Source: Dehalococcoidia bacterium
GTDB lineage: Bacteria > Chloroflexota > Dehalococcoidia > JAUSIH01
Length of the DNA: 49,089 nt
Direction: 5' to 3'
Assembly: GCA_030648205.1 (NCBI GenBank)
Contig: JAUSIH010000029.1
Coordinates: 1-49,089, forward strand
Positions 45,963 to 48,850 of the stretch are shown here, in pieces. Under the pieces are notes generated by a model. It was given only the letters and a program-made list of their open reading frames with translations. It did not search any database and was not told where the DNA came from. The stretch's first letter is position 1. Each line of letters begins with the position of its first letter. Made by a program: the position numbers and the translations under genes.

Positions 45963-46904
45963 CTATATGAGTGGCGGAAACTGCGTGGTGCTGACCGGCT
46001 TTCCCATGTACCAAAAACATGATCGCAGTTTAGTTGCAACGGTTGGTTTGGTGTTGCTGACGAAGAGATAACCGGCGTGGGAAGCAGATACCAGACACGC
46101 TAGCTCCGCGGGTTTCGCTCTATCCATCCTAGTGGAGTTTGCCTGGAAAAGAGTCCCTAATTTGCTAACCAGTGGTGCAAGGTCTTCATCAGTGCTAACG
46201 AGATAGATGGCCATGTCGGCTCCCAGAATGTTGACACGCCTCAGAAATGCTTCAAGCTCCTTGTCAATGACCTCCGACATATCTTCTATGCATTCAATAT
46301 AACAAAGCCTCGAACCGGATAATGCGATAACATCAAAACTGCCATCGGGGACACCTTTCAACTTGACCCCCCACTCTGCTGGGATCGAGAAGGCCTTCCT
46401 CAGAGTTGCAGCTACATCACATGCAAACCTATTCGGCCCGTCACTCCTAGCCTCAAAAACCACCCCTTTTTGTTTCAACAAGGACTCGACAGGCGAACCG
46501 AGGAGACGAGACTGTATCTCTTCAGGACTCATTACTTGAGTTGTCTTTCCCATTCTGATGAAAGACTTCCCATAAGACTGATATAGCGTGTTATGCATAT
46601 CTGGTACTATTTGTGCAGCGAGCACAGTATTGCCCCCACTCTCCACTTGAAACAGGAAGGGAGCCAATGGTGGTTTGGTGTTCTGACGGATCGTGTTAGC
46701 AAAAACTTCGATTCCCTTTTTCCCCAGTTGCACCCCACAAATGTGCCCATCATTTGTGACCCCAATGAGCACTGTCCCGCCGACCGCATGCACAAATGCA
46801 CACAGCGCCTCAATAGCTTGTTTCGTCTCTTTAAGACTTTCCTTGAACTCCAATTGCTGTCCCTCACCTTGCTTGATGAGAGCTAGCAACTCTTCCTGAG
46901 TCAT
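45963..46904 (-). CDS. AlbA_2 (Schlafen-like) domain protein
   Basis: This protein has an N-terminal AlbA_2/Schlafen AAA-4 type domain: EGQQLEFKESLKETKQAIEA, then LCAFVHAVGGTVLIGVTNDG, ICGVQLGKKGIEVFANTIRQ, and KSFIRMGKTTQVMSPEEIQS. The C-terminal half (from about 165) is not recognised. It has strands such as YIECIEDMSEVIDKELEAFL resembling a small nuclease-like fold, but this is weak. The gene is far more AT-rich than its surroundings and was probably acquired. The ATG at 46904 is chosen for GGGGGA upstream. Such domains occur in regulators and in phage defence, but the role here is unknown. Confidence 0.75.
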   Translation of the reverse strand: MTQEELLALIKQGEGQQLEFKESLKETKQAIEALCAFVHAVGGTVLIGVTNDGHICGVQLGKKGIEVFANTIRQNTKPPLAPFLFQVESGGNTVLAAQIVPDMHNTLYQSYGKSFIRMGKTTQVMSPEEIQSRLLGSPVESLLKQKGVVFEARSDGPNRFACDVAATLRKAFSIPAEWGVKLKGVPDGSFDVIALSGSRLCYIECIEDMSEVIDKELEAFLRRVNILGADMAIYLVSTDEDLAPLVSKLGTLFQANSTRMDRAKPAELACLVSASHAGYLFVSNTKPTVATKLRSCFWYMGKPVSTTQFPPLI

Positions 46905-46987
46905 TTCATCCCCCACAGACACGTGATTCTAAAAGCAGAGGAGGCCAGACCGTGTGTCCAGCCTCCTCGTATTCGCTCCCTTTTGCC

Positions 46988-48703
46988 CTACTTCTTGCGG
47001 TTCTTGAAATCGTACACGGACGCGGCGGGCGTGCCATCCTTGAACGCGATAGGCCGCGTCGTCGGAATGGTCGGGTCGCCGAAGGTGGGCAGGAACTGCC
47101 CGTGCGCGCCCACGGCGCCGATGACCACCACCATGATGTCGTCCGGCTTGTCCGTGATGGACATGAAGGCGTCGTGCACGTCCCAGCCGAACTTCGGCCG
47201 GCGCAGTTGGTAGTGCGGCACCTCCAGCCTGTGGAGATCGCCCAGCGAGATGTGCGCGTTGTCGTACATGTACTTCTGCACGTCCGCCCTGCTGTACCCC
47301 AGCCGCGAGACGATCTGCGCGTGGCCGGGGTTCATCACCAGCACCGCGGTGCCCGCGTGGAACGCGTTGTTCGTCGCGAAGGCCGACATGGCGTTGGCGG
47401 CCACGCTCAGGAAGCTCTCGCCCGTGCCGTCCCATACCACGAAGTTGTGCTCCGCCTGCACGCCGACCACCGTGACGGCGCTGACCTCCTTCTTGAGGCC
47501 GCGGCTCACGTGGAGCGGCTCCCAGGGACTCTCCTCCTCATTCTCCCCGGCGCAGAATGTGAACTTGGCGGGATGCCCATGAATGGCCTTGTCCGTCGTG
47601 CCCGGCATGCCGCCGCCGATGTTCACCAGCATCAGACGAATCGCCCTGCCGAGGGTGGCGTTGGCCTGCCATCCGGGGCCGAACGCGCCGAAGCTGTAGT
47701 TGACTTTCAGCTCGTTGCGCACCGGTCCGTTGACGATGAGCAGGGGCGCCACCGGATTCGTCGTCGCCTGCAGCGCGAAGAGGTTGAACTGCGGGTCGCC
47801 GAGCGCTTCGACGGCGGCGACGAGCACCGGCATGTACTCCGGCAGGCAGCCCGCCATCACCGCGTTCACCGCGATCTTTTCCGGAGTCGCCTTGCCCCAG
47901 CGGGGCGCCAGCTTGACGATTGTCTCGTCCCGCTTCCGGTCGGTGAACTGGAGCATCTCCTCCACCAGTTCCTCCGTCGGCGGGATGATGGGCAGACCGT
48001 CCGTCCATCCGCGCTCGTAGAAAGCAGCGGTGGCCTCCCGCGCGTTGGCCCGTGACTTCACCTTCTCCTGGGTGGGCATCACCCGTGGGCGGGAGAGCTT
48101 CTGCTCCACTTCCTCGATATTGTTCTTGGAGCGGAACTCTTCGATAAGCTTCTCCCGGGGCGTGGTCAGGACTCGCACGATCTCGTCAATGAGCTTGTCC
48201 GCCGCTTCCTCGATCTGCTTGTCGGAGAGGCCGAACAGCTCGTGCGGGATGGAGACGATGGGCAGCGAGGGGACGCCCATGTGACGGGCCTCGGCGCGGC
48301 CCAGGACGTTGAAGCCGGTGGAGCATATGGTGGCCGTGGGCTTGCCCAGCTTCTCGACGGTGGTAGTGTCAACGACAGTCCATGTCGTGCAGCCCCCTCA
48401 GATGCCCAGGCCGTCTATGACGAAGTCCGCCTCCTTCGCTATCTCCTCCAGGCCCGGCGCCTTGCTGCTGGAGCGGCGCTTGCGCGCATGCAGCACCTTG
48501 GAGAAGTTGTAGCGCTCCAGCAGGCGCTTCTCCACCTGTCCCAGGAAGACATTCGCGCCCTCCTTGCCGTTGTCCACGATGGCGGCCACCTTGCCGTTCA
48601 GCGTGGTCAGACGCGGCGCCAGCCCGATGTCAAGCTGGTCTGTCTCCGCGATAGGGTTCATGAGGTCTATAACCTGTGCCTGGGTCTTCAGCTCTCCGGA
48701 CAT
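46988..48703 (-). CDS. UGSC-family selenoprotein (in-frame UGA)
   Basis: From ATG 48703 (AAAGGAGG upstream) the frame runs through one TGA at 48400-48398 to the stop at 46988, giving 571 residues with selenocysteine at 102. Around it the protein reads DFVIDGLGI-U-GGC-TTWTVVDTTTVEKLG, the pattern of UGSC-type (seleno)proteins, here U-G-G-C with Cys105. ATICSTGFNVLGRAEARHMG and LPIVSIPHELFG follow, continuous with the fold. The C-terminal domain (about 190-571, TDGLPIIPPTEELVEEML onward) is of unknown function. A SECIS-like hairpin follows the TGA. Callers would give a 101-residue piece and a 430-residue piece starting at 48280. Confidence 0.87.
48372..48388 (-). promoter_or_regulatory. Candidate SECIS hairpin of the UGSC gene
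   Basis: On the minus strand ACGACA pairs with TGTCGT (6 bp, perfect) around TGGAC. The loop has G at its second position and begins 15-16 nt after the TGA, at the lower edge of the range known for bacterial SECIS elements. Confidence 0.7.
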
Positions 48704-48850
48704 GCTTGCCCTCCTTTAGAGCAGGGGGATGATCCAGCCGCGCAGACACGGGACAGACGTCGCCAACGGCTGCGCTGCGGTGATTACGCAGCGGCATTGT
48801 AGCTAACACCTTGCGGGAAGTCAATGCGAGCGGCGTTTTCTACCGGACAA

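What the first reader, a model, noticed from the sequence alone, without database searches (positions are those of the whole stretch)
46988..48703. UGSC-type selenoprotein hidden by an in-frame UGA
Two same-frame ORFs abut at a TGA, and the joined protein reads smoothly through it: GLGI-U-GGC-TTWTVVD. This is the motif position of UGSC-family proteins, which exist in Sec and Cys forms. Residues after the TGA and before the first Met of the second ORF (codons 103-141) are conserved-looking protein rather than random sequence. A perfect 6-bp stem with a 5-nt G-containing loop follows 15-16 nt after the TGA. The C-terminal 380 residues form a domain whose function is not known to me. The motif here is UGGC rather than UGSC.
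Basis: partly seen in the sequence, partly recalled or inferred. Interest (0 to 1): 0.85.

Follow-up and report, generated by a model that had tools for sequence, protein, structure and literature searches.

The report
Giant family of paired selenium enzymes
The gene cut in two by an in-frame stop-like codon is one of 41 related genes in this bacterium (and at least 173 in a relative) that all appear to use that codon to insert the rare selenium amino acid, far more selenium proteins than the largest count found in the reviewed literature for one bacterium.

Summary
Confirmed: one 571-codon minus-strand frame (46988-48703) is interrupted only by TGA at codon 102. The joined protein has a Pfam UGSC domain (130.8 bits, gathering score 25) with the TGA at the motif, followed by a 366-residue domain with no Pfam or clear PDB match. 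The genome has selB, selD and tRNA-Sec. Sec is well supported: 105 of 110 UGSC domains in 80 named loci carry TGA there and 3 carry Cys, and a hairpin 17-20 nt after the TGA exceeds synonymous-codon controls at family level. The window gene's own hairpin proves nothing alone. The UGSC/'Unknown_1' fusion was reported in 2008, so this gene is a new member of a known kind. 40 of 41 are fused to, or on the same strand near, the second domain, so the two parts look like one enzyme. Neighbours are solute-binding proteins, CoA-transferases and transporters. The UGSC profile aligns with the Sec region of glycine reductase GrdB, Sec on Sec. Best reading: substrate-specific catabolic selenoenzymes; GrdB-like chemistry is inferred.

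The parts
46988..48703 (-). whole UGSC/'Unknown_1'-type fusion gene, 571 codons plus TAG stop
   Evidence: translation with TGA=U
48710..48716 (-). ribosome-binding-site-like AAGGAGG, 6 nt before the ATG
   Evidence: sequence
48164..48664 (-). UGSC domain (PF24696)
48398..48400 (-). in-frame TGA, codon 102, read as selenocysteine
48389..48391 (-). Cys105, second half of the UxxC pair, nearly invariant
   Evidence: alignments
48372..48388 (-). 6-bp stem with 5-nt loop TGGAC (loop 15 nt after the TGA), SECIS candidate
   Evidence: not significant alone; family-level excess at loop start 17-20 nt
46991..48088 (-). C-terminal domain (residues 206-571), 'Unknown_1'-like, conserved Cys286 and Cys384, no Pfam match

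Best explanation
It is a selenoprotein: UGA102 is decoded as selenocysteine by the genome's own SelB/tRNA-Sec machinery. It is one copy of a two-part enzyme (Sec-bearing Rossmann-like UGSC domain plus a larger partner domain, fused here, separate neighbouring genes in most other copies of this genome) that this lineage has multiplied to 41 Sec copies, and a relative to at least 173. Inferred: each pair is a substrate-specific catabolic enzyme for a different organic compound, often taken up by transporters encoded next door; the Sec, backed by Cys105 three residues on, acts as a nucleophile as the Sec of glycine reductase protein B (GrdB) is thought to, attacking the substrate at a carbon with a leaving group, with Cys105 resolving the intermediate and the partner domain binding the substrate. 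Shown: Sec position, machinery, pairing, multiplication, GrdB-like Sec region. Inferred: catabolic role (about 0.65) and GrdB-like chemistry (about 0.4). Sec itself about 0.95. The confidence given here is for the catabolic, substrate-specific selenoenzyme reading.
For: TGA at the motif column in 41 of 44 G000 domains and 173 of 178 G027 domains, 105 of 110 in 80 named loci from many phyla, with Cys in Sphingomonas, Sphingomonadales and Natrialba. selB 351 bits, tRNA-Sec 69 bits with tca anticodon, selD 366 bits. Hairpin with loop 17-20 nt after TGA in 30 of 41, 126 of 173 and 72 of 74 genes versus 14.2, 59.0 and 38.8 in synonymous controls. 40 of 41 G000 Sec domains fused with, or on the same strand within 1.2 kb of, a C-domain, none on the opposite strand. 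Neighbours: SBP_bac_5, BPD_transp_1, CoA_transf_3, MFS, Bac_luciferase; 18 of 55 SBP genes within 5 kb of a Sec domain, 6.7 expected; similar catabolic neighbours on plasmids of other phyla. UGSC versus GrdB profiles: probability 93.3, E 2.8e-7, 94 columns, Sec aligned with Sec; reversed control E 0.2.
Against: No protein-level evidence. The window gene's own hairpin is not significant by itself and its loop starts at 15 nt, outside the family mode. PF07355 (GrdB) matches none of 36 fusion proteins at E <= 1, the GrdB profile rests on 4 sequences, and those GrdB proteins lack the Cys at +3. In its window the gene sits at a contig end beside a Schlafen/AlbA_2 protein and no transporter or CoA-transferase was seen next to it, so the catabolic inference rests on the paralogues. 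Eight paralogues without Sec (3 in G000, 5 in G027) have N, H, A, S, S, S, G or Q there, none Cys. selA was not searched.
Confidence: 0.65

Rival explanations
1. General redox protein: the UxxC pair makes a selenenyl-sulfide and the family serves thiol redox homeostasis, as proposed with a thioredoxin-like fold in 2008.
For: UxxC motif, nearly invariant Cys105; Zhang and Gladyshev call the fold likely Trx-like (passage); a thioredoxin-disulfide reductase gene lies near one Variovorax pair.
Against: The predicted fold is a strict beta-alpha alternation and the best structural rows are Rossmann/CheY/B12-binding-like folds; 41 to 173 diverged paralogues beside uptake and catabolic genes are hard to explain as one housekeeping redox function.
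Confidence: 0.25
2. TGA is a real stop and two shorter proteins are made, or the gene is a decayed pseudogene.
For: Standard ORF calling ends at the TGA; the downstream ORF has an ATG at 48280.
Against: Residues 103-141 between TGA and that ATG are conserved; the same TGA stands at the same column in 41 domains of this genome, 173 of a relative and 105 in named loci; Sec machinery present.
Confidence: 0.03
3. TGA is reassigned genome-wide (for example to Trp or Gly).
For: Many genes with internal TGA in this genome.
Against: All 41 G000 Sec domains hold exactly one TGA, always at the motif column; the standalone C-domain genes and most other genes hit have none inside; a Sec tRNA with tca anticodon is present.
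Confidence: 0.01
4. The large count in G027 is inflated by a mixed bin.
For: G027 is a MAG with 7% contamination from a co-assembly.
Against: Among 150 domains one pair exceeds 85% identity, so strain duplicates are not the source; one selB over the cut-off is listed; the window's own genome (0.95% contamination) already has 41. A mixture of distant species at the 7% level is not excluded.
Confidence: 0.1

Closest known systems
UGSC family (PF24696; NCBIfam NF041046 'UGSC family (seleno)protein')
   Same: domain match over Pfam's cut-off; Sec or Cys at the motif; Cys at +3
   Different: below the NCBIfam cut-off (112.3 vs 125 bits); UGGC instead of UGSC
UGSC/Unknown_1 fusion of Zhang and Gladyshev 2008 (PMC2398784)
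   Same: UGSC selenoprotein fused with a conserved unknown domain (passages read)
   Different: identity of the two C-domains could not be tested (Figure S1 not held); [quoted passage not shown]
GrdB / PrdB (PF07355), selenoprotein B of the glycine, betaine, sarcosine and proline reductases
   Same: Sec after a beta strand, UGxx, 'E..GIP' and 'PHP' blocks align with Sec on Sec
   Different: no full-length match; partner domain is not a named GrdE; Cys at +3 is missing in the GrdB proteins of this class
Largest bacterial selenoproteomes in print: 57 (Olavius algarvensis Delta 1 symbiont) and 63 (a Methylomirabilota MAG), as given in PMC13188914
   Same: many selenoproteins in one bacterial genome
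   Different: at least 173 genes of one family in G027; the record numbers are totals per genome (passages read)

Membership tests
UGSC family (PF24696) | profile match over gathering score | tested here: met
   130.8 bits vs 25, residues 14-180
UGSC family (PF24696) | Sec/Cys exchange at the motif in homologues | tested here: met
   105 U, 3 C, 1 Q, 1 gap of 110 domains in 80 loci
NF041046 UGSC (seleno)protein equivalog | score over NCBI's curated cut-off | tested here: not met
   112.3 vs 125 bits
UGSC/Unknown_1 fusion (2008) | UGSC domain followed by a conserved unknown domain in one chain | tested here: met
UGSC/Unknown_1 fusion (2008) | C-terminal domain is the same as Unknown_1 | not testable with these tools
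   the alignment is in Figure S1A, which is not held
bacterial selenoprotein | selB, tRNA-Sec and selD in the genome | tested here: met
   selA not searched
bacterial selenoprotein | SECIS hairpin just after the UGA | tested here: inconclusive
   window gene: hairpin present but also in 5562 of 20000 recodings; family: clear excess
bacterial selenoprotein | Sec found in the protein | not testable with these tools
   needs mass spectrometry or 75Se
GrdB (PF07355) | family match by HMMER | tested here: not met
   no match at E <= 1 in 36 members; no match at E <= 0.001 in G000
GrdB (PF07355) | homologous Sec region | tested here: met
   hhalign probability 93.3, E 2.8e-7, 94 columns
GrdB (PF07355) | pyruvoyl partner GrdE and GrdA/GrdC/GrdD in the genome | not tested
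   no search made
thioredoxin-fold selenoproteins | thioredoxin fold of the UGSC domain | tested here: inconclusive
   predicted beta-alpha alternation and Rossmann-type rows; absence from a list does not exclude

The most novel reading that the evidence does not exclude
A lineage of Chloroflexota (probably Dehalococcoidia) has built a catabolic toolbox of dozens to nearly two hundred substrate-specific, two-part, GrdB-like selenoenzymes per genome, giving by far the largest selenoproteome described and a new class of reductive selenoenzymes with an unknown partner domain.
Probability: 0.4. Interest if true: 0.88.

Novelty: new member of a known kind. Interest (0 to 1): 0.72.

Why it matters
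Selenocysteine is costly, and the bacteria with the largest selenoproteomes in the reviews read have 46 to 63 selenoprotein genes. A genome with 173 Sec genes of one family would raise that upper bound nearly threefold, point to a metabolism that depends on selenium, and mean that gene callers which stop at TGA break that many genes in one genome. The GrdB link turns a family without known function into one with a testable chemistry, and the paired domain gives a partner to assay.

Tried and rejected
Genome-wide TGA reassignment, true stop and pseudogene were considered and rejected (see rivals). Strain duplication as the source of the copies was tested and not supported. Structure search of the C-domain gave no clear relative: best Foldseek E 2.8e-3 (fumarate hydratase of Leishmania), best Z 5.2 (two-subunit fumarate hydratase) and 5.0 (cyclic amide hydrolase), hardly above the rows below them; GrdB and Trx folds were absent from the rows shown, which excludes nothing. 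No solved relative by sequence. Rfam found nothing in the window at gathering scores. Paper searches for a known function or for Chloroflexota selenoproteomes gave nothing usable: 'UGSC family' + selenoprotein 0 papers, SAR202 + selenocysteine 2 listed, not opened, Chloroflexota + selenoproteins 2 listed, not opened; a text search of the SAR202 enzyme-family paper PMC6946804 found no 'selen' or 'UGSC'. Deng et al. 2026 (source of the number 63) was not read; it is cited through PMC13188914. The search was set too loosely to be informative beyond one paper opened. Neighbour lists without a baseline were backed by the SBP_bac_5 count over the genome.

Dropped before counts: in G000 two of 46 domain hits do not cover the motif. 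In the first SECIS scripts 184 of 187 Sec domains passed the motif and length filter (41 + 143); one search used 41 + 173 + 74, the 74 being Sec domains of named loci outside 16 loci titled Chloroflexi/Chloroflexota/Dehalococcoidia/SAR202. In G027 58 of 208 candidates were left unscored by the tool; a second query reached 26 more TGA domains and the fetched DNA one more. Of 46 named loci considered for the structure alignment 36 passed a no-other-stop filter and 35 of these (L239 left out) were aligned with P0001.

Full report
OBSERVATION. The minus-strand frame from ATG 48703 to TAG 46988 holds 571 codons and a single in-frame TGA at codon 102. Table-11 ORFs stop at it: 48398-48703 and 46988-48280. 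An AAGGAGG lies 6 nt before the ATG. The stretch between TGA and the next ATG (residues 103-141) is 77% identical to its best match in genome G027, against 61% before and 63% after, with most differences at third codon positions.

SELENOCYSTEINE. Pfam PF24696 UGSC matches residues 14-180 with 130.8 bits (gathering 25); the NCBIfam model scores 112.3, below its cut-off of 125. The genome (G000, 2.69 Mb, 95% complete, 0.95% contamination) has selB over its cut-off, a tRNA-Sec that ARAGORN reads with anticodon tca, and selD, itself with one in-frame TGA. selA was not searched. In 80 named loci from genome contigs, 110 UGSC domains were found: 105 have TGA, 3 Cys (Sphingomonas L239, Natrialba L287, Sphingomonadales L314), 1 Gln, 1 gap. 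On plasmids a Variovorax and a Natrinema copy have Cys and an Acidovorax copy TGA; a divergent Sporomusa copy has Met. Among 100 genomes of the class, I count 12 with listed matches whose UGSC part holds TGA (the list was cut by the tool); 11 of the 12 have selB over the cut-off, the exception, G045, being 62% complete, against 60 of 100 overall.

SECIS. The window hairpin (ACGACA-TGGAC-TGTCGT, loop 15 nt after TGA) is not remarkable alone: 5562 of 20000 synonymous recodings have one as good, and shuffle z-scores lie between -0.80 and 0.00. The family is different. In the 42 nt after TGA folding is more stable than synonymous recodings (mean z -0.57 in 41 G000 and -1.18 in 143 G027 genes), while windows at other offsets give mean z from -0.32 to +0.66. 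A hairpin with the loop starting 17-20 nt after TGA is found in 30 of 41 G000, 126 of 173 G027 and 72 of 74 genes of other phyla, against 14.2, 59.0 and 38.8 expected from synonymous recodings; nearly all loops hold a G. The window gene's loop starts at 15 and so is outside that mode.

SCALE. PF24696 finds 46 domains in G000; 44 cover the motif, 41 have TGA, three have A, H or N. In G027 (contig lengths equal to JACPQD01, 'Chloroflexi bacterium NC_groundwater_644'; 96% complete, 7% contamination) 208 candidates were seen and 150 scored; with a second query and fetched DNA 178 domains cover the motif and 173 have TGA there; none has Cys. The copies are diverged: nearest-neighbour identity has a median of 0.51 in G000 and 0.70 in G027, with one pair above 0.85. 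In a tree of 222 domains G027 forms 31 single-genome clades, the largest with 36, 35 and 17 members (support 0.877, 0.144, 0.947), and G000 another 31, mostly of one or a few: old diversity plus later bursts. A 2026 review gives 63 as the largest predicted bacterial selenoproteome, with a warning about mixed MAGs, and 57 before it (PMC13188914, passages read); a 2025 paper gives 46 as its largest (PMC12013277, passages read).

TWO PARTS. 40 of 41 Sec domains in G000 are fused (6) with, or lie on the same strand within 1.2 kb of (34), a gene for the second domain; none is on the opposite strand. In G027 it is 147 of 173 (96 fused); the other 26 are about as many as the domains fetched with only about 300 bases of flank, so they are mostly untested. 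AlphaFold gives pLDDT 90.8 and pTM 0.92 for the fusion and 91.3 and 0.92 for the C-domain alone. The UGSC domain is a beta-alpha alternation with Sec just before the helix that follows a strand; the best structural rows are Rossmann/CheY/B12-binding-like (Z about 10), not the Trx-like fold suggested in 2008. The C-domain has no clear match (Z at most 5.2), no Pfam match, and conserved Cys286 and Cys384.

RELATIVES AND MECHANISM. The UGSC profile aligns with the C-terminal Sec region of four GrdB proteins of the class (probability 93.3, E 2.8e-7, 94 columns, Sec on Sec) and more weakly with 13 short PrdB-like proteins (80.1, E 1.4e-5); reversed profiles give E 0.2 and 0.023. Neighbouring genes of the copies encode SBP_bac_5 proteins, permeases, MFS transporters, family III CoA-transferases and a luciferase-like monooxygenase (20 proteins scanned, chosen from recurrent or adjacent ORFs). 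18 of 55 SBP_bac_5 genes lie within 5 kb of a Sec domain, 6.7 expected, binomial p 5.7e-5 (neighbouring copies are not independent, so the p-value is optimistic). Pairs on plasmids of Natrinema, Variovorax, Acidovorax and Sporomusa lie among CoA-transferases, tripartite-transporter binding proteins, enoyl-CoA hydratases, isocitrate lyase/PEP mutase-like proteins and MFS transporters. I infer substrate-specific catabolic enzymes and, less surely, a GrdB-like nucleophilic Sec resolved by Cys105. How GrdB works is recalled, not taken from a call. The window copy itself has no transporter seen beside it; its downstream neighbour is a Schlafen/AlbA_2 protein and it lies near the contig end.

TAXON. 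Its class holds genomes of 1.4 to 1.9 Mb in one contig and named relatives titled Dehalococcoidia and SAR202, so I take it to be Dehalococcoidia (Chloroflexota); this is inference.

VERDICT. As a gene: a new member of a known kind, since the UGSC family is curated and the UGSC/Unknown_1 fusion was reported in 2008 (PMC2398784, passages read). The number of copies and the GrdB link are what a specialist would find surprising; I found no paper on either in the searches, which cover open-licence PMC papers only.

Noticed in passing
G027:C101:30937-31443 (within L232): One UGSC copy reads UGTU: both the Sec and the Cys of the UxxC pair are TGA, a possible double-Sec site.
   Followed up: partly
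G000:C53:41321-42244 (L316): selD of the window's genome carries an in-frame TGA, so it is probably a selenoprotein itself.
   Followed up: no
L324-L337 (class genomes): PF07355 matches of about 140 residues run into an in-frame TGA, mostly in a U-x-x-C context: apparently PrdB-like selenoproteins; G027 has two PF07355 matches, one of them read here.
   Followed up: partly
L363 8001-9509 (NZ_CP021650.1, Acidovorax sp. T1 IncP plasmid): A plasmid typed as conjugative carries a TGA-type UGSC copy; the listed gene there ends at the TGA.
   Followed up: partly
G000 contigs C14, C16, C43; G027 contigs C17, C20, C58, C62, C101: Eight copies have neither Sec nor Cys at the motif (A, H, N; Q, G, S, S, S) and have also lost the Cys at +3; they may have another function.
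   Followed up: no
window 45966-46922 (-): Downstream neighbour is a Schlafen/AlbA_2 domain protein.
   Followed up: no
L247, L269, L274, L283, L296: MAGs titled 'Bordetella parapertussis' hold UGSC copies; the title looks like a misassignment.
   Followed up: no
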